Virus record (IMG/VR): IMGVR_UViG_3300001848_000627
Span: 1 to 24,102 of that record
DNA length: 24,102 nt
Origin: a virus
Reading direction: 5' to 3' (one strand)
Shown: one piece after another, positions 5,153-18,184 of the stretch
Layout: each line of letters starts with the position of its first letter
Numbering within the stretch: position 1 is the stretch's first letter
The notes under the pieces: generated by a model
The model's database searches: none
Seen by the model: the letters and a program-made list of their open reading frames with translations, nothing else
Told to the model about the DNA's origin: nothing
Position numbers and translations under genes: made by a program

Positions 5153-8100
5153 ATGGCTATCAAGTACTACAACGCTCCTCCTTACTACGACGACTTCGAT
5201 CAGACGAAGAATTATCTGCGTGTGCTGTTTCGTCCTGGGTATGCAGTTCAGGCACGCGAACTGACTCAGCTTCAGACCGCGATTCAGGCACAGATCGACC
5301 GTTTCGGCAGCCATGTCTTTAAAGAAGGCTCGCAGGTGCTGGGCGCAGAAGTCACGATTGACACCAAGTATGCGTATATCAAACTGGAGCCCACGATCAC
5401 AGTAGGCGGTACAGTTTACAATGCAGATGTGCAGGCACCTCTTGCTGTCGGCATGACATTGACTGGTGTTGTTACTGGAATTACTGCCACCGTACTCGAG
5501 GTCATTACTTCTACATCTAGTGATCCTACCACGCTGTATGTCAAGTATACCGGATCAGATACGATTCTGAACAAGTATCAGGTATTCGGTGCCGGTGAGC
5601 AATTGACATTCTCGCCTGTTGGAGGAGGCACACGTTATCTCCAAGTTGGAGCTCCAACAACAATTCCTTTGGGATACGGCACCAAGGTATCTCTCAATGA
5701 GGGCGTATTCTTCACAAAGGGATGCTTTGCATATACTCCAGCAGCATCACTGATCATGGCAAAGTATAACAATCAGCCATCTGGGCGCATTGTGTATACT
5801 GTTTCAGAAAGCATTGTCACGCAGACAGAAGATCCCACGCTGACAGATAATGCTTTGGGTACGCCAAATGCTGCAGCACCAGGCGCGCATCGTTATGCTA
5901 TTGCTCTTGATCTTTCTGTTCAGCCTTACGATCTTAGAGCTCGCACAGAGACAAATATCATTCAGGTTGCTGTTATCAAGAGTGGCAAGATTGTCAGTCA
6001 GGTACATTCTGAGTACAATCAGCTGAATGATACTCTGGCTCAGCGCACCTATGAAGAATCTGGCGATTATACAGTAAAGCCATTTCAGATCAATATTCGT
6101 GAATATTACAATGATGGAACAAACGGCGGCTTATACACCACAGTTCAGATCCGCGATCAATACCCTACTCTTGCTAGCGATACTGCGGCAGTTACCTATG
6201 GTAAAGCGCGTCTTGCTGTCGGCCTTGAGCCATCCATTGCATATGTCAAAGGATATCGCATCGAGCTGATCGATACTCGATACGTCGAGGTTGAAAAGGC
6301 ACGCGATGAAGGCTACACCAATGCATCATCGACAGTTGCTCCTTTGGGCGGATATGTCAATGTAGTGCTGACTGGAAGCTGTGGATTGCCAGACATCACT
6401 AACTTCTCGCGATTGCGCCTGCAGACATCTTCTGGATCTGGCGGCAGTATCATTGGATATGCACGTGCTCGTTCGCTTGAATATTCTGGTACAAGCAACA
6501 TCTATCGTTTGTATCTGTTCGATGTGCAGATGAACAGTGGTCAGTATTTTGCGCAGACTACATATTTGTATCAGGCAGGAACGCCTGCATTCAGTGTGGC
6601 TATTTCTGGTACAGCGACGATCAATGATGTGGGTCGTAATACTCTGGTTTACAAATTGCCAGCGAATGCTATTCAGACACTCCGTACCAAGGACGGAATG
6701 ATCGATACGCTGTACTACGTCAAGCGTAAGTACGACAACCGCACGACAGATGCATCAAGCAACGTCACGATTTCAGCTGCAGCAGATGAAATCTTTGAAT
6801 CGACACAAACTTCCGATTGGACTGCAGTAACAGCGGCAGGTGCATTTGCTACACCGGCATCGATTGTACTGGGCGCAGGCGGAACTTCGATCACGCTGAC
6901 ATTCACATCTCTGCCAAGTACTGCAATGTATATCATTGGTCCTTCACGCCGCAATCTGCGCGAAAAGATCAAGAAGCTCGCGACCAGCAGTATTCAGCTC
7001 ACAAGTCCAAATACCACGCCGGGTGGGTACGATTTGCTCGGCGCAACTGACTTGTTTAAGATCACTGGCATTTATATGTCAGCAAATCTTTCAACGAACG
7101 CGACGACATCGGATACAGATATTTCTGATCGCTACACCATCGACAACGGTCAGCGCGATAACTTTTATGATGTTGCCCGTATTCAGTTAAAGGCCGATGC
7201 GGTTGTTCCTGCCGGTCGTGTTCTTGTTACATTTGAATACTTTGCACACCAGCCAGGAGATTACTTCTCTGTCGATTCGTATACCGGTATTGACTACGAA
7301 CTAATTCCAGCATTTGCATCAGCAAGTGGTCTGATTCAGCTGCGCGATGCAATTGATTTCCGTCCTACCAAGGATAATTCTGGTACCGATTTCGTTAGTA
7401 CTGGTGCTTCAACTGTCAACATGGTGAAGCCAGGATCGATCATCACCTGCGATATTCAGTATTACCTGCCACGCACCGACAAGCTTTATGTCGATAAGCT
7501 GGGTAACTTCAGCACTATTATGGGTGTCTCGCAGTTCAACCCAGTACCACCAGATGATCCAAACGATGCAATGGTGCTTTATGTACTGAAGCTTGGCGCG
7601 TACACCTTCGGTCCACAGCACATTGTTCCAGTAATGCTGGATAACAGACGTTACACGATGCGCGATATCGGTAAGCTTGAAAGGCGTATCTCAAACTTCG
7701 AGTATTATACTGCACTGTCACTGCTGGAGCGCGATACCGCAGGCCTGCAGATTGTCGATGCTTCTAATAATACTCGTTACAAGAATGGATTTGTAGTCGA
7801 TTCATTCTACGGGCATGGAATTGGTGCAGTAACTAATCCGGATTACAAATGCTCTATCGATAAGCAAAATGGCGTGCTGCGCCCTGCGTTCTATCAGGAC
7901 AACGTGAAGTTGCTTGTTGATATGACTAAGTCAACAGGGGTTCGTAAAACTGGTGATTTGCTTACTCTGGATTATGTTCAGACAAATGAAATCGAGCAAC
8001 CTTATGCATCGACTACAGAGTATCTGAATCCATTCAACTTTCACAATACTGTTGGACAACTGTATCTGTCGCCTTCAACCGACGAATGGCGCGAAACACT

Positions 8101-9301
8101 ACGTAAGCCAAGCGTGGTCATTGACCAAACTGGTGCATATTCAACATATCAAGCACTGAGCGACAATGATGCATCGCAGACAGTCTGGAATGACTGGCAG
8201 ACCACATGGACTGGCGCTACTATCACAAATGCAGTAGATACAGCAGGCGATCCAGTATGGTCTACAGACAATGGTGGCCAATGGACTACTACGCATACCT
8301 CGTCTGCAGATCTAACACAAACCACGATTCAGACACGCACTGGCATTCGTACCTCGTATGTGCCATCGACGCAAACGCAGTCGACTGGCGATAAGGTTGT
8401 AGAAATAAATGTGGTACCATATATTCGCTCGCGTAAGATTTACTTCAAGGCAATGGGGTTGCGTCCAAATACTCGTTTATATGCTTTCTTTGATGGCACT
8501 AGCGTGGATAGTTATGTTCGTCTAGAATCTGCATTCGTGGATTATACTACGCGAAATGATACCACAAACTATATGGATGCTACTAGCCATCCAAATGGGG
8601 CAATTCCTCTTTACTCAGATTCAACCGGCACAGTAATCGGATCATTTGTGATACCAAATACTGCCACACTGAAATTCAAGACTGGTACACGTATCTTTCG
8701 TCTGACGAGTAATGCAGCAAATTCTGCTACCGCAGTAATAACAAGTGCTGAAACTGCATACACCGCATCTGGTATGCAAGATGTAGTGCAGAATACTCTG
8801 ATCACCACGCGCTCCGTCAATATAGTTCGTACTGATGTAAGCGATAATCAAACATTGACATCGACAACAAAACTCAACTCGACGTATGATGTTACCAGAC
8901 CGGACCTTTGGAAGATTAAGGATCTTCTCCCAGGCGGCGCATTGAATCCTAATCTTCAGGTACCTGGCGATAACAACGTACAAATTGCAGATACAAATAC
9001 TGAAGCATCATACAATTCTGGCGGTAAGTATAATCAGTCTAACTCTGCTGCTGCTGAGCCCGCACCAGGATTCTCAACAGGAACTGCTGGACAGCCTGCC
9101 ACTACAACAACTGCTGCAGCTGCTTCATCGATGAATTGGACATCTCCGGATTCTACACCTCCAGCAGTTGATGTTCACTCGTGGCCAAATAGAGATGCAC
9201 TGGCAGCTGATACACCTACTACAACAACAGTACCTCAGGCAGAGTCTGCATCCAATCAATGGAATAATCCAGATGCTACTACTCAGTGGAACACGCAATA
9301 A
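5153..9301 (+). CDS. DUF4815-type virion protein (large N-terminal part)
   Basis: A 1382-residue tail or baseplate structural protein. The N-terminus (YYDDFDQTKNYLRVLFRPGY, then AVQARELTQLQTAIQAQIDRFGS) is the hallmark of DUF4815 proteins of cyanophage-like myoviruses. Their exact place in the virion is unsettled, but they are encoded between wedge and fibre genes. Residues about 90-165 hold a beta-module like those in the two preceding genes (VGMTLTGVVTGITATVLEV). Residues about 840-890 hold RRYTMRDIGKLERRISNFEY, a probable helical segment. Residues about 1094-1225 carry IYFKAMGLRPNTRLYAFFDG and FKTGTRIFRLTSN, also usual in the family. From about 1295 the chain becomes low complexity (Ala, Thr, Pro, Asn, Gln) with spaced Trp. 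Family members I recall continue into a DPLAQTF-type domain in the same chain; here that domain is the next gene. The start is ATG at 5153, 14 bases after gp8. Confidence 0.75.
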   Translation: MAIKYYNAPPYYDDFDQTKNYLRVLFRPGYAVQARELTQLQTAIQAQIDRFGSHVFKEGSQVLGAEVTIDTKYAYIKLEPTITVGGTVYNADVQAPLAVGMTLTGVVTGITATVLEVITSTSSDPTTLYVKYTGSDTILNKYQVFGAGEQLTFSPVGGGTRYLQVGAPTTIPLGYGTKVSLNEGVFFTKGCFAYTPAASLIMAKYNNQPSGRIVYTVSESIVTQTEDPTLTDNALGTPNAAAPGAHRYAIALDLSVQPYDLRARTETNIIQVAVIKSGKIVSQVHSEYNQLNDTLAQRTYEESGDYTVKPFQINIREYYNDGTNGGLYTTVQIRDQYPTLASDTAAVTYGKARLAVGLEPSIAYVKGYRIELIDTRYVEVEKARDEGYTNASSTVAPLGGYVNVVLTGSCGLPDITNFSRLRLQTSSGSGGSIIGYARARSLEYSGTSNIYRLYLFDVQMNSGQYFAQTTYLYQAGTPAFSVAISGTATINDVGRNTLVYKLPANAIQTLRTKDGMIDTLYYVKRKYDNRTTDASSNVTISAAADEIFESTQTSDWTAVTAAGAFATPASIVLGAGGTSITLTFTSLPSTAMYIIGPSRRNLREKIKKLATSSIQLTSPNTTPGGYDLLGATDLFKITGIYMSANLSTNATTSDTDISDRYTIDNGQRDNFYDVARIQLKADAVVPAGRVLVTFEYFAHQPGDYFSVDSYTGIDYELIPAFASASGLIQLRDAIDFRPTKDNSGTDFVSTGASTVNMVKPGSIITCDIQYYLPRTDKLYVDKLGNFSTIMGVSQFNPVPPDDPNDAMVLYVLKLGAYTFGPQHIVPVMLDNRRYTMRDIGKLERRISNFEYYTALSLLERDTAGLQIVDASNNTRYKNGFVVDSFYGHGIGAVTNPDYKCSIDKQNGVLRPAFYQDNVKLLVDMTKSTGVRKTGDLLTLDYVQTNEIEQPYASTTEYLNPFNFHNTVGQLYLSPSTDEWRETLRKPSVVIDQTGAYSTYQALSDNDASQTVWNDWQTTWTGATITNAVDTAGDPVWSTDNGGQWTTTHTSSADLTQTTIQTRTGIRTSYVPSTQTQSTGDKVVEINVVPYIRSRKIYFKAMGLRPNTRLYAFFDGTSVDSYVRLESAFVDYTTRNDTTNYMDATSHPNGAIPLYSDSTGTVIGSFVIPNTATLKFKTGTRIFRLTSNAANSATAVITSAETAYTASGMQDVVQNTLITTRSVNIVRTDVSDNQTLTSTTKLNSTYDVTRPDLWKIKDLLPGGALNPNLQVPGDNNVQIADTNTEASYNSGGKYNQSNSAAAEPAPGFSTGTAGQPATTTTAAAASSMNWTSPDSTPPAVDVHSWPNRDALAADTPTTTTVPQAESASNQWNNPDATTQWNTQ
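9030..9298 (+). repeat. Low-complexity A/T/P/N/Q tail of the DUF4815 protein
   Basis: The last 90 or so codons encode runs of Ala and Thr followed by short Trp-centred units: NWTSPDSTPP, SWPNRDA, QWNNPDATTQWN. Nothing similar occurs elsewhere in the window. It looks like a disordered tail or linker at the point where the family's chain is interrupted. Confidence 0.6.
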
Positions 9302-11093: not shown

Positions 11094-14000
11094 ATGGCTA
11101 CCACAGTCCTACGTACCGCTACCTTTGAACAGTGGCGCACAGCAACCAATCAAATCTCCACTGATCTGGGTACTGTCGCTAGCCTGACAACTACCGACAA
11201 GAGCAGTGCTGTTAATGCCATCAACGAGCTAAAATCACGCACAATCTATATTGGTACAACAGGAATCGTTACCGACAGATCTTCAGGCAATCAGGCGCTG
11301 ACGGGTATTTCGAGTGTCACACTTCCGGGTAGCACAAGTGGAACAGTACAGATCATTCCGGTTGCGGCGGCAGGAACGACTGTTCTTACCGCACCAGCAA
11401 CAAGTGGAACAATTATTACCACGGGCGATATTGGCACAGTGACAAACACGATGCTGGCAGGTAGCATCGCAAACAGCAAGCTTGCTAACAGCACAATCTC
11501 CGGCGTCTCGCTGGGCAGCAACCTGAACGCACTGACGCTGGGTGACGGCCTAGATGGCACGTCATACAACGGTACTGCAGGAATTACTGCTGCAGTTGGA
11601 GCATCAATTGCCCGCCGCGCAGATACTCAATATATTGGTACGACTGCAGTAACATTGAATCGTGCATCTGCTAATCTGCCACTGACAGGAATTGCTTCTG
11701 TTGCGCTTCCTGGTAGTACAAGCGGCACGATCACGCTGCAGCCTGCTGCGATTGCTGGAACGACCACACTGACACTTCCTTCTGGAACAGGCACGATTCT
11801 GTCTGATCAAAGTGCCATCAACGGATCACAGCTTGTGGCAGGATCGGTGGCAAATGCCAAACTATCATCGAGCTCACTGACTGTCGGCTCTACGTCAATT
11901 TCTTTGGGTAGTACATCTACCACTCTTGCAGGTCTGACATCAGTAACATCAATTGCATTTACTGGTGCGCTGACAGGAAACGCATCAACTGCAACCACTC
12001 TACAAACATCACGCAACATCAATGGCGTGGCGTTCAACGGGTCTGCTGACATCACAATCGCTGCTGCTACGCCAAATGCGTTGACAGCCGGCAGTGGCAT
12101 TCAGCTCAATTCAGGCACGACATTCGATGGATCCGCAGCAAAGACAATTTCTGTTGACTCGTCTGTTGCTCTTCGAGCAGATACTCATTACATCGGCACG
12201 ACTGGAGTCACGCTGAATCGTGCATCTGCTAACCTAGCGTTGTCTGGTATTTCAAGCGTTACTCTTCCAGGCAGCACAAGTGGTACTGTTCAGATTGTTC
12301 CAAGTGCTGTTGCTGGCACTGGCACGATTTTGACGTTGCCTGCTACATCAGGCACTGTTCTAACTACAGCAAGTGGTATCGACGGCGCTCAGCTGAATAC
12401 TACATCAGTTGCTAATGCTAAACTTGCTAACAGCAGCGTTACTCTGGGCACAACGAACGTTGCGCTGGGAGCAACTGCTACCACGCTGGCCGGACTGACA
12501 TCCGTTACTTCTACTGGATTTACTGGTGCACTGACAGGAAATGTTACCGGTAACGTGAGCGGAAATGCAGGAACAGTGACTAATGGCGTCTATACCACAG
12601 ACACTGGTACCGTTACCAACACGATGCTGGCAGGAAGCATTGCAAACGGAAAACTTGCTAATAGCAGCATCACATTGGGAACAACAGCTGTTGCGCTAGG
12701 TGCTACAGCAACCACATTGACTGGTCTGACATCGGTCACATCTACAGGATTCACTGGTGCACTGACGGGTAATGCATCTACTGCTACCACGCTGCAAACA
12801 AGCAGAAATATCAACGGCGTGGCATTTAATGGATCTGCTGACATTACAGTTACTGCAAATACTACAAACGCACTGACTGTTGGTACTGGTCTAGCACTTG
12901 ATTCTGGCACGGCATTCAATGGATCTGCAGCACGCACGCTGACTAATACTGGTGTCACATCCCTTGCTGGTACTGCTAACCGCATTACTGTATCTGGATC
13001 AACCGGTGCGGTAACACTGAATCTGCCACAGGACATTGCCACGACTTCATCGCCTACATTTGCGGGCGAGACACTTACTGGTGCAATCGCGCAGAACGTC
13101 AACATTGCAGATGCATCGAAGTCAAATGTCTACACGCTGACGAATTCTAATGCGAATTACACAGCAAATCCAACGCGCTTTGCAATGGATTCTGCAGGCA
13201 ATGTCATAATCACTGGAAATTTGACAGTCAGTGGAACAACCACTCTTACTGCTACCACATATTCACCTGATTGGACAACAGTTAGTAACAAGCAATACTA
13301 CGGTCAGATCAAGGATGGAACGACGACAGCAATCGCAGCCACGAACATTGCAAACGGCGATGCTATCTGGTTCCGCGGATCGAACGGTGTTACTATCGCT
13401 GTTGGATCAAACGATGTGACATACGGTGACAATGTTCTGATCAGCCTGTCTGGTGTTCCAAATACATCACTTGCTAATTCTACGATCACGATTGCAGGAA
13501 CATCGACCGCGCTAGGTGGCTCAATCGCGCTTGATACGATCACCGGTCTATCTGCCACAGGCATCGTCAAGCGCACTGCCGCAAATACACTTGCCACCGC
13601 AACTGCGGGCACAGATTACGTCATCCCTTCTGGAAACATCACTGGATCTGCTGGATCTGTAGCAAATGCACTGACGATTGGAACAGGACTTTCTGGCGGA
13701 TCATATAACGGATCTGCTGGTGTTACGATTGCGAACACGGGCGTCCTTGCTCTGACACAGGGTGGAGGTATTGCAATCACTGGAACAAATGCTAATCTGA
13801 CAGTCACGCACGGTGCTACTTCGTCTGTTACTAGCCTGACATCTGCTGCTAATACCTTCATTACTGCACAGACTTACGATGCGTACGGCCATGTTACTGC
13901 TCGCACTGCTGCCGCTGTTGACTTTACTGTTTCTGCTAACTATGCATTTGCAAACATCGTTGTCGGTGCAGATTCTGGATATACCTGGGGAACGATCAAT

Positions 14001-16223
14001 GCTACCACGACTCAGGCTGCTGATAACAGCTCTGACACGATCACGATTGTCCCAGGTACCACGGCTGGTGTCAATGGCATCGATATTCAGGGAAGTACCG
14101 ATGCAATCAATGACGCACTGAGAATTTCACATAGTAAAACGTCTTCTCTTTCTGGCACATATGGTGGTAATGGTATCGCATCGATCACTGTCGATGGAAT
14201 GGGCCATGTCACAGCAGTCGGTACAGCAACATATTTGACATCTTCGACAGGCGTAGCAAGTTTGGCTGGTACAGCAAATCAGGTCATTGTTTCTGGATCG
14301 ACTGGAGCAGTCACTTTGTCATTGCCGCAAAGCATTGCAACAACTAGCAATGTCACATTCAATGCACTGACAACTAACGCAGATGTGATTGTTGGAGGCA
14401 ATCTGACGGTCAACGGTACTACAACCACTGTCAATTCGACCACGCTGGACGTCGTTGATCTCAATATTACTGTGGGTAAAAATGCAGTGACTGCAGCTGC
14501 ATCCGATGGTGCTGGTTTGACAGTCGGTAATTATGCAGGCAATCCTACGCTGCTGTACGTCAATGCTTCAAACCGCTGGGTGATGAATCGCGGCGTGGAA
14601 GGATCATCATTTGTTCGTACTGGTGGAACATCGAGCCAATTCCTGAAGGCCGATGGATCAGTTGATTCTACTTCGTATCAGGTTGCTGGATCATACGCCA
14701 CAGCTACACAAGGTACTAAAGCCGATAATGTGGGCGCAGTGAATGGTATCATCAAGTCTAACGGATCTGCCACATTCAGTGCTGCTGTTGCTGGTACCGA
14801 CTATGTCATTCCATCGGGTAGTATTACCGGATCTGCTGGATCTGTTGCAAATGCTCTGACTATTGGCACTGGTCTGAGCGGCACATCATATAACGGATCT
14901 TCTGCTGTTACGATCTCGATTCCGACATCTGGTGTTGCTGCTGGAACTTACAACAATGTCACTGTAAACGACAGAGGCATCGTTACTGCTGGATCTAATG
15001 TTTCGTATCTGACAGCTGAAAGTGACACGCTTGCCACTGTTACAGCTCGCGGCGCGACTACAACTGTAGCAATTACTACGACAGGATTCATCAAGTCAGG
15101 TGGAACATCTAGCCAATTCCTGAAAGCTGACGGATCAGTCGATTCAAATACTTACCTGACATCAGTGGGCAATGGAGCGTTTGGTGTAAGTATTGGAGTT
15201 GCTGGTGCTACAAACACGACTGTAACCTGGGGAACATCGTCAGGATTTACTGCTAATGCTGCATCTGCTTCTACGTATGATCTGAAAGTTGGTCCTGCAC
15301 TTACAGGTCTGGCAGCGCAAATGACTGGAGCAGGAAGCGGATTCCTGAAGAAGACTGCTGCTGACACATATTCGCTAGACACGAGCACATATCTGACTTC
15401 CGCTGTCACAAGTGCTGCTGCTGGAACTGGCATATCTGTTTCTGCAGCAACAGGTGCTGTGACTATCACAAATACCGGTGTCACCTCACTCAATCTTGGC
15501 GTGATTACTGGTGGTGGATCAGGATTTACTTCTGTTGGAAGTCTGACTGGTTCAGTGAATATGCAGTTCTCGAATCCGCTAACTGCTAGCCTCACGACGC
15601 CAAATGCGCTTGCAGTGGATCTGATGACGCAGTCTGGATTGACTGCTGGTACTTATAACAACGTTACTGTTAGTAGCAAGGGTATTGTTACTGCAGCATC
15701 GAATGTTTCGTATCTGACATCTGCAGTCACGAGCCTGACTGGCACATCGAATCAGGTCATTGCTTCTGCATCGACAGGATCTGTCACGTTGTCGCTGCCA
15801 CAAAGCATCAATACTGGCGCATCGGTTCAGTTCGGATCGCTAGGCATCGGCACCGCAGCATCTGGCGTGACCGGTGAAATTCGCGCTACAGACAACATCA
15901 CTGCGTACTACACCTCTGATGAACGCCTCAAGACAAACGTCACAAAAATCGAGAATGCTCTGGAAAAGGTATCTCAGATCGATGGCGTGATCTACGACTG
16001 GAACGAGGTCTACAAGGAAAAGCACGGTGGCGTGGATGGATTCTTCGTCCGTGAGCAGAATTCCGGCGTCATTGCTCAGCAGGTCGAAAAGGTGTTTCCA
16101 AATGTGGTCGGCGAACGTGGCGATGGCTACAAGGCAGTTCGTTATGAACTCCTGGTTCCTCTGCTGATCGAGGCAATCAAGGATCTGAAGGCAGAAGTCG
16201 AGGCACTCAAAGCACAGAAATAA
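11094..16223 (+). CDS. Long tail fibre with C-terminal S74 chaperone/peptidase domain
   Basis: A 1709-residue fibre. The N-terminal region includes LTTTDKSSAVNAINELKSRT, a motif common near the base of phage fibres. Residues about 45-1590 are Gly/Ser/Thr/Ala-rich repeats with few charges. They include two copies of a long module (RADT-QYIGTT, LNRASANL, LPGSTSGT, TLQTSRNINGVAFNGSADIT), three copies of a GTANQV-SGSTGAVTLSLPQ unit, and two of GGTSSQFLKADGSVDS. Residues about 1607-1709 form an S74 domain: the TSDERLKTN signature with the Ser1608-Asp1609 pair expected at the self-cleavage site, then GVIAQQVEKVFPNVV, and a C-terminal coiled coil (LLIEAIKDLKAEVEALKAQK). In this family the domain trimerises the fibre and then cuts itself off. 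The start one base after the preceding stop implies coupled translation. Confidence 0.88.
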   Translation: MATTVLRTATFEQWRTATNQISTDLGTVASLTTTDKSSAVNAINELKSRTIYIGTTGIVTDRSSGNQALTGISSVTLPGSTSGTVQIIPVAAAGTTVLTAPATSGTIITTGDIGTVTNTMLAGSIANSKLANSTISGVSLGSNLNALTLGDGLDGTSYNGTAGITAAVGASIARRADTQYIGTTAVTLNRASANLPLTGIASVALPGSTSGTITLQPAAIAGTTTLTLPSGTGTILSDQSAINGSQLVAGSVANAKLSSSSLTVGSTSISLGSTSTTLAGLTSVTSIAFTGALTGNASTATTLQTSRNINGVAFNGSADITIAAATPNALTAGSGIQLNSGTTFDGSAAKTISVDSSVALRADTHYIGTTGVTLNRASANLALSGISSVTLPGSTSGTVQIVPSAVAGTGTILTLPATSGTVLTTASGIDGAQLNTTSVANAKLANSSVTLGTTNVALGATATTLAGLTSVTSTGFTGALTGNVTGNVSGNAGTVTNGVYTTDTGTVTNTMLAGSIANGKLANSSITLGTTAVALGATATTLTGLTSVTSTGFTGALTGNASTATTLQTSRNINGVAFNGSADITVTANTTNALTVGTGLALDSGTAFNGSAARTLTNTGVTSLAGTANRITVSGSTGAVTLNLPQDIATTSSPTFAGETLTGAIAQNVNIADASKSNVYTLTNSNANYTANPTRFAMDSAGNVIITGNLTVSGTTTLTATTYSPDWTTVSNKQYYGQIKDGTTTAIAATNIANGDAIWFRGSNGVTIAVGSNDVTYGDNVLISLSGVPNTSLANSTITIAGTSTALGGSIALDTITGLSATGIVKRTAANTLATATAGTDYVIPSGNITGSAGSVANALTIGTGLSGGSYNGSAGVTIANTGVLALTQGGGIAITGTNANLTVTHGATSSVTSLTSAANTFITAQTYDAYGHVTARTAAAVDFTVSANYAFANIVVGADSGYTWGTINATTTQAADNSSDTITIVPGTTAGVNGIDIQGSTDAINDALRISHSKTSSLSGTYGGNGIASITVDGMGHVTAVGTATYLTSSTGVASLAGTANQVIVSGSTGAVTLSLPQSIATTSNVTFNALTTNADVIVGGNLTVNGTTTTVNSTTLDVVDLNITVGKNAVTAAASDGAGLTVGNYAGNPTLLYVNASNRWVMNRGVEGSSFVRTGGTSSQFLKADGSVDSTSYQVAGSYATATQGTKADNVGAVNGIIKSNGSATFSAAVAGTDYVIPSGSITGSAGSVANALTIGTGLSGTSYNGSSAVTISIPTSGVAAGTYNNVTVNDRGIVTAGSNVSYLTAESDTLATVTARGATTTVAITTTGFIKSGGTSSQFLKADGSVDSNTYLTSVGNGAFGVSIGVAGATNTTVTWGTSSGFTANAASASTYDLKVGPALTGLAAQMTGAGSGFLKKTAADTYSLDTSTYLTSAVTSAAAGTGISVSAATGAVTITNTGVTSLNLGVITGGGSGFTSVGSLTGSVNMQFSNPLTASLTTPNALAVDLMTQSGLTAGTYNNVTVSSKGIVTAASNVSYLTSAVTSLTGTSNQVIASASTGSVTLSLPQSINTGASVQFGSLGIGTAASGVTGEIRATDNITAYYTSDERLKTNVTKIENALEKVSQIDGVIYDWNEVYKEKHGGVDGFFVREQNSGVIAQQVEKVFPNVVGERGDGYKAVRYELLVPLLIEAIKDLKAEVEALKAQK
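11976..12060 (+). repeat. Fibre module copy A (NASTATTLQTSRNINGV)
   Basis: First copy of a roughly 28-codon unit GNASTATTLQTSRNINGV followed by AFNGSADIT. Further copies lie at about 12768-12850 in the same gene and 21839-21925 in the last fibre gene. The repeats are close at protein level and diverged at synonymous positions. Confidence 0.7.
12768..12852 (+). repeat. Fibre module copy B
   Basis: Second copy of the GNASTATTLQTSRNINGV unit, about 790 bases after copy A. It belongs to a larger duplicated block that also includes the VALGATATTL and FTGALTGN segments. Confidence 0.7.
15912..16220 (+). other. S74 intramolecular chaperone domain of the long fibre
   Basis: Residues about 1607-1709. 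The Ser-Asp pair of TSDERLK lies at 15915-15920. Known S74 domains cleave immediately before this Ser after folding the upstream beta-helix, so the mature fibre would end near residue 1607. Neither the 558-residue fibre nor the visible part of the last fibre shows this domain. Confidence 0.8.
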
Positions 16224-16236
16224 TCTGCCAGTTGAC

Positions 16237-16257
16237 GAGAGGCTCAACCTCTCCTTT
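16237..16257 (+). terminator. Intergenic hairpin, possible weak terminator
   Basis: GAGAGG (16237-16242) pairs with CCTCTC (16248-16253) across the five-base loop CTCAA, followed by CTTTATAT and the next ATG at 16263. The stem is only six pairs and the T tract is broken, so it would at most attenuate. It could instead mark an RNA end or structure the next gene's start. Confidence 0.4.
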
Positions 16258-16262
16258 ATATC

Positions 16263-17249
16263 ATGGACAACTTTGCCAAGTATGCTCTCGCGGCCGGAGG
16301 AACAATCCGGCCGCTGATCATTCCTGCTGCTCTGACTGGCGGGACAGGTCTGATGAATCCCAGCATCTTCAATGATAACGGAAAAATCATTGCTGTAGTG
16401 CGCCATGTGAACTATACCTTCTATCACTCTGAGAAGAAGATATTTCTGCATCCCTGGGGTCCGCTGACATACCTGCATCCAGAGAACGACCTGCACCTGC
16501 GGACGCGCAATTTCTACTGCGAGCTGAATGACGCACTGGAGATCACGCTGCATAAAGAGATCGATATGTCTCATGGAGACAGTCAATACACTCCAGTCTG
16601 GGAATTCCGTGGATTAGAGGATGCACGCATATTTCGATGGGATGGAAAGCTGTTCATCTCAGGCGTGCGGCGCGATGTGAAACCAAACGGCGAGGGGCGA
16701 ATGGAACTATGCGAGATCGACAGTGATGCTAAAGAGATCTCGCGGTTTCGCATTCCTCCGCCAAATGATCCCAATAGCTACTGTGAAAAGAATTGGATGC
16801 CGGTCATCGATATGCCTTACCACTACGTCAAGTGGACAGCGCCGACAGAATTAGTACACGTGGATCCTAGCAGACAGTCCTGTGCTACAGTAAAGCTTGT
16901 GGACAACAATCCGAGCATTCGGCGTGACATTCGTGGCGGTACTCAGATCATTCCAATTGGTAAAGGTCTGCGAATGGCTATGACTCATGAGGTCGATCTG
17001 TTCAAGTCAGAGGTAGGGCGCAAAGATGCTGTCTATCATCATCGGTTTGTAGTCTGGGATCAGGATTGGAATATCGTCAAGTTCAGCAAAGAATTCTGGA
17101 TGATGGACGGGCAAGTCGAATTTGGCGTGGGAATGTGTGCGGACAATGATCCAAAGAACTTACTGATCACCTTTGGATTTCAGGACAATGCTGCTTTTGT
17201 TCTGCGCGTTCCTTTACAAGCAGTGCTGAACTCCATCGATGCGCCATGA
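16263..17249 (+). CDS. Glycosidase-like five-bladed beta-propeller protein
   Basis: A 328-residue soluble protein with no signal peptide or membrane segment. Motifs spread along it fit the GH130/GH43-like five-bladed propeller superfamily: MNPSIFNDNGKIIAVVRHVN near residue 31, FRGLEDARIFRWDGKLFISG near residue 116 (compare the G-L-E-D-P-R blade motif), CEKNWMPVIDMPYHYVKWT near residue 173, and RGGTQIIPIGKGLRMAMTHE near residue 224. Members act on or bind mannosyl and related sugars; the actual substrate cannot be read here. It sits between two fibre loci and its stop overlaps the start of the TPR-like gene (ATGA), so the two products probably work together. Possible roles are processing host surface glycan, binding it, or maturing virion sugars. 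An enzyme is not proven, because the catalytic acids cannot be placed without a structure-based alignment. Confidence 0.6.
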   Translation: MDNFAKYALAAGGTIRPLIIPAALTGGTGLMNPSIFNDNGKIIAVVRHVNYTFYHSEKKIFLHPWGPLTYLHPENDLHLRTRNFYCELNDALEITLHKEIDMSHGDSQYTPVWEFRGLEDARIFRWDGKLFISGVRRDVKPNGEGRMELCEIDSDAKEISRFRIPPPNDPNSYCEKNWMPVIDMPYHYVKWTAPTELVHVDPSRQSCATVKLVDNNPSIRRDIRGGTQIIPIGKGLRMAMTHEVDLFKSEVGRKDAVYHHRFVVWDQDWNIVKFSKEFWMMDGQVEFGVGMCADNDPKNLLITFGFQDNAAFVLRVPLQAVLNSIDAP

Positions 17250-17833
17250 GACTGCATTCGCTACTAGTAACCTACATCGATGACCCGTCTGATCCGATTG
17301 CGAATATGCGGCTGGCACTGGAGTATGATTCGATGGGTCAGCTTGCTTCCGCGGTGTCATTTTACATCCGCGCCGCAGAAAGAAGCAACGATGCCACCCT
17401 ACAGTATACCGCTCTGATCAGAGCAAGCATGTGCTTTGACAAGCTTGGAACGCGCGGATTGTCTGTTCGCGGATTGCTAAACCAAGCAATTACTATACTG
17501 CCAAAACGCCCCGAGGCGCACTTTCTGCTGGCACGCTGGCACGAACGCGAACAGCAGGTTGAAAGCTGGGTGAACTGCTACACTGCAGCAAGCATGGCGC
17601 TAGACATATGCGACTTCTCGGTTGAACCTCTGAGCACACCAGTTGATTATCCTGGGCGATGGGGACTGCTATTCGAGAAAGCAGTATCTGCATGGTGGGT
17701 TGGATTGTGCGATGAGTCATACTTAATCTTCAAGGATCTGCAGCAGAACTATCCTATGGACGCGCCACATCATCAGGCAGTGCTCAATAACCTAGCTATG
17801 ATGGAATCTGCTCGGACACTACCGTATAAATAG
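17246..17833 (+). CDS. TPR-like helical protein coupled to the propeller gene
   Basis: A 195-residue all-helical protein. Successive helix pairs carry TPR-type spacing: NMRLALEYDSMGQLASAVSF then YIRAAERS, LLNQAITILPKRPEAHFLLA then RWHEREQQ, and GLLFEKAVSAWWVGLCDESY then LIFKDLQQNYP. The opening LLVTYIDDPSDP and the PKRPEAHFLLARWHE stretch resemble a TPR domain found in cyanophage and pelagiphage glycan-related proteins, in some of which I recall it next to glycosyltransferase domains. No glycosyltransferase domain is present here. The start ATG (17246-17248) overlaps the upstream TGA, indicating coupled translation. It is probably a scaffold or partner for the propeller protein. Its last codons contain a late promoter sequence for the next cassette. 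Confidence 0.65.
   Translation: MRLHSLLVTYIDDPSDPIANMRLALEYDSMGQLASAVSFYIRAAERSNDATLQYTALIRASMCFDKLGTRGLSVRGLLNQAITILPKRPEAHFLLARWHEREQQVESWVNCYTAASMALDICDFSVEPLSTPVDYPGRWGLLFEKAVSAWWVGLCDESYLIFKDLQQNYPMDAPHHQAVLNNLAMMESARTLPYK
17825..17832 (+). promoter_or_regulatory. T4-type late promoter (TATAAATA)
   Basis: An exact consensus match overlapping the stop of the TPR-like gene (TAT AAA TAG) and followed by ATG at 17846. With the usual T4 spacing, transcription would start near 17838, leaving a leader of only about eight bases. It would drive the cassette from 17846 to at least 20115. Confidence 0.65.
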
Positions 17834-17845
17834 TTAATCTCCAAT

Positions 17846-18184
17846 ATGGCTGTATATGCTAACATTCCCATCGATCAGGGATCAGACTTTGCCTCAGAAG
17901 TAACAGTTGAAGGCTCGGATGGCATCGTCTTTAATCTCACTGGTTATACGGCCAGAGGACAGATTCGAAAGACGTACACCTCGACATCTAAGATCTCTTT
18001 CACCACTCTAATCAATAATCCATCAGCGGGAAAGATCATGATTTCTCTACCAGCTGCGACTACTGCGTCAATGAAACCCGGCCGGTATGTCTATGATATC
18101 GAGGTAGTTCAGACTGGCACCGGCAAAGTTACTCGTGTCGTTGAAGGACAAGTCGAGGTCAATCCTAGAGTAACACGTCTATGA
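17846..18184 (+). CDS. Small virion protein with immunoglobulin-like (BppU-like) fold
   Basis: A 112-residue all-beta protein. It has IPIDQGSDFASEVTV, then FNLTGYTARGQIRKTYTS, SAGKIMISLPAATTASMKPG, and RYVYDIEVVQ with TRVVEGQVEVNPRVT at the end. This pattern is a familiar small protein of T4-like cyanophages and resembles the N-terminal Ig-like domain of BppU-type baseplate proteins. It probably attaches fibres or decorates the distal tail. It is the first gene after the late promoter at 17825, and its stop overlaps the next start (ATGA at 18181-18184). Confidence 0.65.
   Translation: MAVYANIPIDQGSDFASEVTVEGSDGIVFNLTGYTARGQIRKTYTSTSKISFTTLINNPSAGKIMISLPAATTASMKPGRYVYDIEVVQTGTGKVTRVVEGQVEVNPRVTRL

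What the first reader, a model, noticed from the sequence alone, without database searches (positions are those of the whole stretch)
16263..17833. Coupled glycosidase-like propeller and TPR pair embedded in the fibre locus
Two non-structural-looking genes with an ATGA overlap interrupt the fibre genes. The propeller has GLEDAR and EKNW-type motifs of sugar-active propellers. The TPR protein resembles domains I associate with phage glycan-related proteins. This could be an undescribed glycan-processing or virion-glycosylation module that works with the fibres. It is the best candidate in the window for an unusual system.
Basis: partly seen in the sequence, partly recalled or inferred. Interest (0 to 1): 0.65.

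Follow-up and report, generated by a model that had tools for sequence, protein, structure and literature searches.

The report
Phage sugar-transferase propeller with TPR partner
Two overlapping genes inside a phage's tail-fibre cluster encode a five-bladed enzyme built like known mannose-transferring enzymes, and a helical partner that almost always travels with it; hundreds of uncultured aquatic phages carry the pair among sugar-attaching genes, so these viruses probably assemble sugar chains, most likely on their own fibres.

Summary
In detail: an intact 328-aa gene (16263-17249) and a 195-aa gene (17246-17833) overlap by ATGA and sit between fibre genes. The first protein models confidently (pLDDT 88.5) as a five-bladed GH130/GT108-type propeller (best Z 24). 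Residues aligned to the GH130 mannose site (N32, R47, E119, D120, Y258, F287, D308) are invariant in 54 relatives, whereas the hydrolase bases are not acidic (R224, P185). So it is probably a mannosyl transferase or phosphorylase-like enzyme, not a glycosidase. The second protein is a TPR domain present in 54 of 55 non-redundant propeller loci, usually overlapping or adjacent, once fused to the propeller (fusion model pTM 0.92). Elsewhere this TPR is fused to methyltransferase, radical-SAM and GT domains, and neighbours are GT2, GT17, GT25, FkbM and DUF6445 genes. Where the propeller is absent, DUF4422 can fill its slot. There are at least 599 relatives in viral contigs, 3 in 50,697 phage records, 5 on short MAG contigs. 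Best reading: a mannosyltransferase-like enzyme docked to a TPR scaffold in a phage glycan cassette, most likely decorating virion fibres. The window holds the most reduced form. Glycan target and donor are inferred.

The parts
16263..17249 (+). GH130/GT108-fold five-bladed propeller, putative mannosyltransferase or phosphorylase-like enzyme (328 aa)
   Evidence: AF2 pLDDT 88.5, pTM 0.90; PDB Z 24 to GH130, Z 19 to GT108; 26 of 54 relatives hit PF04041 weakly; mannose-site residues invariant
17246..17833 (+). stand-alone TPR domain protein (195 aa), ATGA-coupled to the propeller; proposed scaffold or adaptor
   Evidence: TPR models in relatives; same domain in 54 of 55 non-redundant propeller loci; ten helices in the fusion model
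17246..17249 (+). ATGA stop/start overlap, likely translational coupling (no clear Shine-Dalgarno before the second ATG)
16356..16358 (+). codon N32, aligned to GH130 mannose-binding Asn (BT3780 N74, BF0772 N73)
16611..16628 (+). GLEDAR (residues 117-122): equivalent of the GH130 GxEDPR motif, D120 = proposed proton-relay Asp
17184..17186 (+). codon D308, aligned to GH130 mannose O4/O6-binding Asp (BT3780 D363, BF0772 D344)
11094..16223 (+). upstream tail-fibre gene (1709 aa) with C-terminal Peptidase_S74 chaperone; candidate acceptor, not shown
   Evidence: relatives of it also precede the propeller in L006 and L012
17846..18184 (+). downstream fibre-assembly-like gene (112 aa)
   Evidence: PHROG 3304, E 9e-31; homologue also follows the cassette in L006

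Best explanation
The pair is the minimal core of a phage glycan-assembly cassette. The propeller is an inverting mannosyl-type transferase, or phosphorylase run in the synthetic direction, with the GH130/GT108 fold. Its invariant basic residues would hold the phosphate of a sugar-phosphate or GDP-sugar donor, and D120 acts through the mannose O3 as proposed for GH130. The TPR domain binds the propeller and holds it with the other sugar-modifying enzymes (in relatives as a covalent fusion), and may also present the protein acceptor. The acceptor is most likely the phage's own fibre proteins, encoded in the same cluster. Shown: ORFs, predicted fold, residue conservation, linkage of the two genes, natural fusion, synthetic gene neighbourhood. 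Inferred: transferase direction, donor identity (mannose), physical complex in this phage, fibre as target.
For: Fold: AF2 pLDDT 88.5; VIA-align Z 24.3 to RaMP1 and Z about 24 to other GH130 phosphorylases, Z 19 to Leishmania GT108 mannosyltransferases, GH43 below at 18. Weak PF04041 hits in 26 of 54 members. Active site: N74, R89, E141, D142, Y302, F344 and D363 of BT3780 align to N32, R47, E119, D120, Y258, F287 and D308, all invariant in 54 relatives (roles from PMC4599007, and PMC4264767). The hydrolase bases E268 and E227 align to R224 (invariant) and P185. Partnership: TPR in 54 of 55 non-redundant loci, 46 adjacent, 33 overlapping; natural fusion L036; distance matrices correlate r 0.73 against a permutation maximum of 0.25; fusion model pTM 0.92, with the conserved 51-80 loop rising from pLDDT 56-64 to 82-94. 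Synthetic context: the TPR is fused to FkbM, other methyltransferase, radical-SAM, GT2, GT17 and GT25 domains; downstream GT2 x20, DUF6445 x16, FkbM x8, GT17 x8, GT25 x8, two mannose-6-P isomerase domains, one GDP-mannose dehydratase; propeller fusions to GT17, GT25, radical SAM and DUF6445; DUF4422 fills the slot in L115 where the propeller is missing. Fibre context: window, DSL-LC02, L006-L008, tail-fibre PHROGs among upstream genes.
Against: No biochemistry. The profile alignment to GH130 is not significant on its own (E about 0.03) and is supported by co-linear motifs and the fold only. Mannose is not proven; GH43-like folds act on other sugars. The window has no other GT in 24 kb, so the chain it would build is short or other enzymes lie outside the fragment. 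Only 23 of 55 loci could be tied to fibre or structural proteins of two reference phages by BLAST, and some loci sit in general sugar clusters. A published reading of similar GT islands in pelagimyophages favours host O-antigen modification (PMC7029224). No donor-binding GDP pocket was tested.
Confidence: 0.52

Rival explanations
1. The cassette remodels the host's surface glycan (LPS O-chain or capsule) during infection to exclude competing phages; its position beside the fibres reflects the host-recognition island.
For: Authors of the pelagimyophage survey interpret fibre-island glycosyltransferases this way (PMC7029224). GT25 and DUF4422 are polysaccharide-synthesis families. Beta-1,2-mannose occurs in some O-antigens (PMC4264767).
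Against: Propeller and TPR are soluble (max 19-aa hydropathy 1.2 and 0.9) and no lipid-carrier enzyme family appeared among the neighbours. Host O-chains are made by many membrane steps. The TPR-enzyme fusions and the position in the fibre cluster suit protein acceptors. The window phage has only this pair in 24 kb.
Confidence: 0.2
2. The propeller is a beta-mannosidase or phosphorylase that degrades host or storage glycan (glycosidase), either in the virion or in the cell.
For: GH130 fold and mannose-site residues. GenBank calls relatives 'MGP protein' and 'beta-mannosyltransferase'. GH130 phosphorylases are reversible.
Against: The hydrolase bases are not acidic. Neighbours and fusion partners are synthetic. 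No hydrophobic signal-like segment and no recognised fibre-anchoring domain. A DUF4422 gene (glycosyltransferase-like by own knowledge) occupies the same slot in L115.
Confidence: 0.13
3. The propeller has lost catalysis and serves as a glycan- or protein-binding lectin or chaperone, with the TPR, for fibre assembly.
For: Gene lies between a fibre and a fibre-assembly-like gene. TPR proteins often scaffold. In the window no other enzyme is present.
Against: Catalytic-site residues are invariant across 54 sequences with pairwise identity averaging 60%, which a lectin would not need. Recurrent fusion to GT, radical-SAM and methyltransferase domains.
Confidence: 0.1
4. The pair modifies phage DNA (glucosylation-type hypermodification).
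For: Phage glycosyltransferases often modify DNA, as cited in PMC12619734.
Against: Locus is in the late fibre region, with no nucleotide-hypermodification genes seen in the window. Protein- and polysaccharide-type modifiers (GT25, GT17, FkbM) prevail.
Confidence: 0.05

Closest known systems
[quoted passage not shown] BF0772/MGP (3WAS), RaMP1 (5AY9), BT3780 (5A7V)
   Same: Five-bladed propeller (Z 24); GxED-x-R motif; mannose-site residues N, R, E, D, Y, F, D aligned and invariant
   Different: 10-16% identity; window protein below PF04041 detection; hydrolase bases absent; lies in viral synthetic clusters with a TPR partner instead of mannan-use loci; GLEDAR has Ala where GH130 has Pro
CAZy GT108 Leishmania mannosyltransferase/phosphorylases (6Q4W, 6Q4X, 6Q50)
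   Same: Same fold (Z about 19); biosynthetic role with sugar donor fits the phage context; dual GT/phosphorylase mechanism (PMC8950772)
   Different: 12-15% identity; eukaryotic storage polymer versus phage cassette; no GDP-binding residues tested; no TPR partner known to us
Giant-virus propeller proteins (Pithovirus, Solivirus, Indivirus, EsV-1-17) in BFVD
   Same: Among the closest structural matches of all (E 1e-21 to 1e-10, TM 0.6-0.8); some in multidomain proteins named fucosyltransferase or LicD
   Different: 17-21% identity; mostly unannotated and untested; the TPR partner was not matched together with the propeller in them
Host-recognition-cluster glycosyltransferase islands of T4-like pelagimyophages and cyanophages
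   Same: GTs and radical-SAM genes beside tail fibres (PMC7029224)
   Different: That paper's text mentions neither TPR nor FkbM and treats them as O-antigen modifiers; the propeller-TPR pair was not found there
TPR-containing glycosyltransferases such as O-GlcNAc transferase (GT41), from own knowledge
   Same: TPR array joined to a sugar-transferring enzyme, where TPRs choose protein substrates
   Different: Catalytic domain here is a propeller or other GT, TPR array is only about 177 aa and is usually a separate or differently fused chain; not tested for homology

Membership tests
GH130/GT108 fold superfamily | five-bladed beta-propeller with full-length structural match to GH130 | tested here: met
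   Z 24.3, 280 residues aligned to 5AY9; GH130 phosphorylases lead the ranking; Foldseek E 1e-10
GH130 (CAZy/Pfam PF04041) | score above the Pfam gathering threshold | tested here: not met
   window protein has no PF04041 hit; relatives reach only E 2e-4
GH130 (CAZy/Pfam PF04041) | mannose-site residues Asn, Asp (relay), Asp (O4/O6), as BF0772 N73, D131, D344 | tested here: met
   N32, D120, D308 invariant; the alignment itself is weak (E 0.03)
GH130 hydrolase subgroup | Glu227 and Glu268 general-base carboxylates of BT3780 | tested here: not met
   aligned to P185 and R224; weak alignment in this stretch, though R224 is invariant
GH130 phosphorylase | three conserved basic phosphate-binding residues | tested here: inconclusive
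   many invariant basic residues (R136, R137, R146, K176, K190, R224, H242, H260) but one-to-one mapping was not secured
GT108 | GDP-mannose-dependent mannosyltransferase activity and Leishmania-type sequence | not testable with these tools
   fold match Z 19; activity needs an assay
TPR superfamily | repeated antiparallel helix pairs with TPR profile match | tested here: met
   TPR_17 in 23 of 47 proteins, best 2e-8; ten helices in the model; window protein alone below cut-off
Phage virion-glycosylation system | glycan covalently present on virion proteins and dependent on the genes | not testable with these tools
   only genomic association with fibres and GTs

The most novel reading that the evidence does not exclude
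Aquatic T4-like phages share a modular glycan-assembly platform in which a GT108/GH130-type propeller mannosyltransferase and a dedicated TPR docking domain form a constant core, and interchangeable enzyme domains (FkbM and other methyltransferases, radical-SAM, GT2, GT17, GT25, DUF6445) are plugged on, mostly by fusion to the TPR, so that closely related phages put different glycans on their fibres.
Probability: 0.35. Interest if true: 0.8.

Novelty: new variant of a known kind. Interest (0 to 1): 0.6.

Why it matters
If true, it names the likely function of a protein pair found in at least about 600 uncultured viral contigs that current domain libraries miss or score weakly, and adds a phage branch to the small propeller-fold mannosyltransferase group now represented by Leishmania GT108. 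It would also help explain why fibre islands of aquatic myophages are full of glycosyltransferases, and make directly testable the open question whether these act on the virion or on the host. Giant viruses hold some of the closest structural relatives, which hints at a shared viral toolkit for making glycans.

Tried and rejected
Direct Pfam, PHROG, NCBIfam and PADLOC scans of the window propeller gave nothing; the PADLOC hit of the TPR (DpdD, E 0.005) is ordinary TPR similarity and was dismissed. Profile search of PDB sequences found nothing. Global hhalign failed and local hhalign was weak; the co-linear alternative alignment was used with that caveat. BT3780 Lys199, the beta-1,2 linkage determinant, fell in a gap, so linkage specificity could not be read. 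The distant DSL-LC01 relative gave only two further loci. Promoter and terminator scan: counts not above shuffles; the hairpin at 16237-16253 is therefore not claimed. MAFFT misaligned two attempts at a fusion alignment; anchor rows with a stop codon read through solved it. A bacterial origin was considered and rejected: only 5 loci turned up in 84,980 genomes, all on short MAG contigs that also carry the TPR gene. An obligatory collagen link was considered: GXY proteins occur in 18 of 55 loci, and none was noticed in the window's translations, so it is not general.

Full report
WHAT IS THERE. The window is a 24,102-base virus record. It has T4-like baseplate genes (gp6-like, a wedge protein, gp8-like), closest to Methylophilales and Pelagibacter myophages at 35-38% identity in gp6, followed by a fibre cluster. 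Between the 1709-aa fibre with a Peptidase_S74 tail (11094-16223) and a fibre-assembly-like gene (17846-18184) lie the two genes of the finding: 16263-17249 (328 aa) and 17246-17833 (195 aa), sharing ATGA. There is no space for another gene between them or directly after the second.

CONSERVATION. Among 50,697 phage records only three hold a relative of the first protein: Synechococcus phages DSL-LC02 (57.5%) and S-SCSM2R (51.3%), both with the second gene directly downstream, and the distant DSL-LC01 (22%). In IMG/VR viral contigs the scan hit its ceiling: 599 confirmed relatives, with more existing. In 84,980 prokaryote genomes there were five, all on contigs of 3-18 kb in MAGs, each with the TPR gene next door. 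So the family is essentially viral and nearly absent from cultured phages.

THE PROPELLER. AlphaFold2 on 54 aligned homologues gives pLDDT 88.5 and pTM 0.90, all-beta with short terminal helices. GH130 beta-mannoside phosphorylases head the structural ranking (Z 24.3, 280 residues aligned), then Leishmania GT108 mannosyltransferase/phosphorylases (Z 19), with GH43 behind (Z 18.5). PF04041 matches 26 of 54 relatives, best E 2e-4, but not the window protein. I fetched true GH130 proteins, anchored numbering on BT3780 (all eleven published residues fell on the expected letters) and aligned profiles. The alignment is statistically weak (E 0.03), but its full-length alternative is co-linear and pairs BT3780 N74, R89, E141, D142, Y302, F344 and D363 with N32, R47, E119, D120, Y258, F287 and D308. 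All seven are invariant in the 54 sequences. BT3780 D142 is the only candidate catalytic acid and E227/E268 are the hydrolase bases (PMC4599007). N73, D131 and D344 recognise mannose in BF0772 (PMC4264767). The base positions correspond here to P185 and an invariant R224, so hydrolysis is unlikely; phosphate- or nucleotide-sugar chemistry is more likely. GLEDAR is thus the counterpart of the GH130 GxEDPR motif.

THE TPR PROTEIN. The window protein is only the domain. In relatives the same ~177-aa domain is found N-terminal, central or C-terminal in proteins of up to 997 aa, joined to FkbM and other methyltransferases, radical SAM/SPASM, GT2, GT17 and GT25 domains. Of 55 non-redundant propeller loci, 54 have it within the held flank, 46 directly adjacent, 33 overlapping; the exception is L011. 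Conversely 65 of 82 loci fetched by the TPR scans hold the propeller. In the propeller-less loci mapped here (L115, L116, L123, L138, L159, L160) a gene of about 247 aa overlaps the TPR start in the propeller's place; the one from L115 was scanned and is DUF4422 (E 1e-23), followed by a GT2. In L036 the two window genes are a single 528-aa protein. Its model has pLDDT 91.7 and pTM 0.92 with ten helices after the propeller. The conserved loop 51-80, poor in the propeller alone (pLDDT 64, 56, 63), rises to 94, 89, 82, consistent with docking there; the different alignment may contribute, and no interface score was available. Propeller and TPR distances correlate (r 0.73; permutation maximum 0.25), while the nearest propeller neighbour shares the TPR-protein architecture in only 21 of 54 cases. 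The enzyme parts are thus swapped around a constant pair.

NEIGHBOURHOOD. Of 107 downstream genes, GT2 matched 20, DUF6445 16, FkbM 8, GT17 8, GT25 8, radical SAM 5, with single or double cases of mannose-6-phosphate isomerase, GDP-mannose dehydratase and GT11. The propeller itself is fused to GT17 plus methyltransferase, DUF6445, radical SAM or GT25 in four loci. Upstream genes are rich in tail-fibre and collagen-like tail families; of ten examined singly, five hit tail families and three hit sugar or methylation enzymes. At least 23 of 55 loci contain homologues of fibre or structural proteins of the window or DSL-LC02. No random-gene baseline was made, so the fibre association is good but not quantified against chance. 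L006 has related fibre genes on both sides as in the window, and between propeller and the following fibre-assembly-like gene it carries GT17-methyltransferase-TPR and GT25-GT2 proteins. The window therefore shows the same slot with everything but propeller and bare TPR missing.

HOW IT MOST LIKELY WORKS. Inference: the propeller transfers mannose (or a close sugar) with inversion from a phosphate-linked donor. The TPR holds it, together with other enzymes where present, and perhaps binds the acceptor. The acceptor is probably the co-encoded fibre. Against this stands the published reading of similar islands as host O-antigen modifiers (PMC7029224), which I keep as the main rival.

NOVELTY. 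Fold and residue pattern are those of a known enzyme group, so this is not categorically new. A viral propeller branch with a dedicated TPR partner and exchangeable modifying domains was not found in the six literature searches of the held library that ran. GenBank submitters already named relatives 'beta-mannosyltransferase' and 'MGP protein'. I file it as a new variant of a known kind.

Noticed in passing
window 15915-16109 (residues 1608-1672 of ORF 11094-16223): The upstream fibre ends in a Peptidase_S74 intramolecular chaperone (E 4e-16), so the mature fibre is probably released by self-cleavage just before the propeller gene.
   Followed up: partly
L029:362-1966; L070:4076-4666; L001:15118-15711: DUF6445 recurs beside the pair (16 of 107 downstream genes) and is fused to the propeller in L029; the L070 match is just below the Pfam cut-off; the similar-sized DSL-LC02 gene in that position is named FkbM methyltransferase in GenBank, which looks wrong. 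Possibly an oxygenase-like modifier; not tested.
   Followed up: partly
L115:7250-7996 and the similar-sized genes in L116, L123, L138, L159, L160: A gene of about 247 aa overlaps the TPR start exactly where the propeller usually lies; in L115 it is DUF4422, an apparent functional replacement. The other five were not scanned.
   Followed up: partly
BFVD hits A0A481Z9G3, A0A3G5AFP7, A0A1V0SDN7, Q8QNP4: Giant-virus proteins are closer in structure to the phage propeller than the solved GH130 entries are by Foldseek E-value, some in large proteins named as fucosyltransferase or LicD; a shared viral glycan toolkit may exist.
   Followed up: no
18 of 55 propeller loci, e.g. L004, L006, L007, L012, L070: Collagen-like GXY proteins occur near the cassette, in some loci together with GT25, the family that includes collagen galactosyltransferases (own knowledge). 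Collagen-type glycosylation of fibres is a possibility.
   Followed up: partly
window 16237-16253: Terminator-like hairpin between the fibre stop and the propeller start; the scan does not exceed shuffles.
   Followed up: yes
window 5153-9301: 1382-aa protein with DUF4815, a large fibre or baseplate-like protein of unknown role.
   Followed up: no
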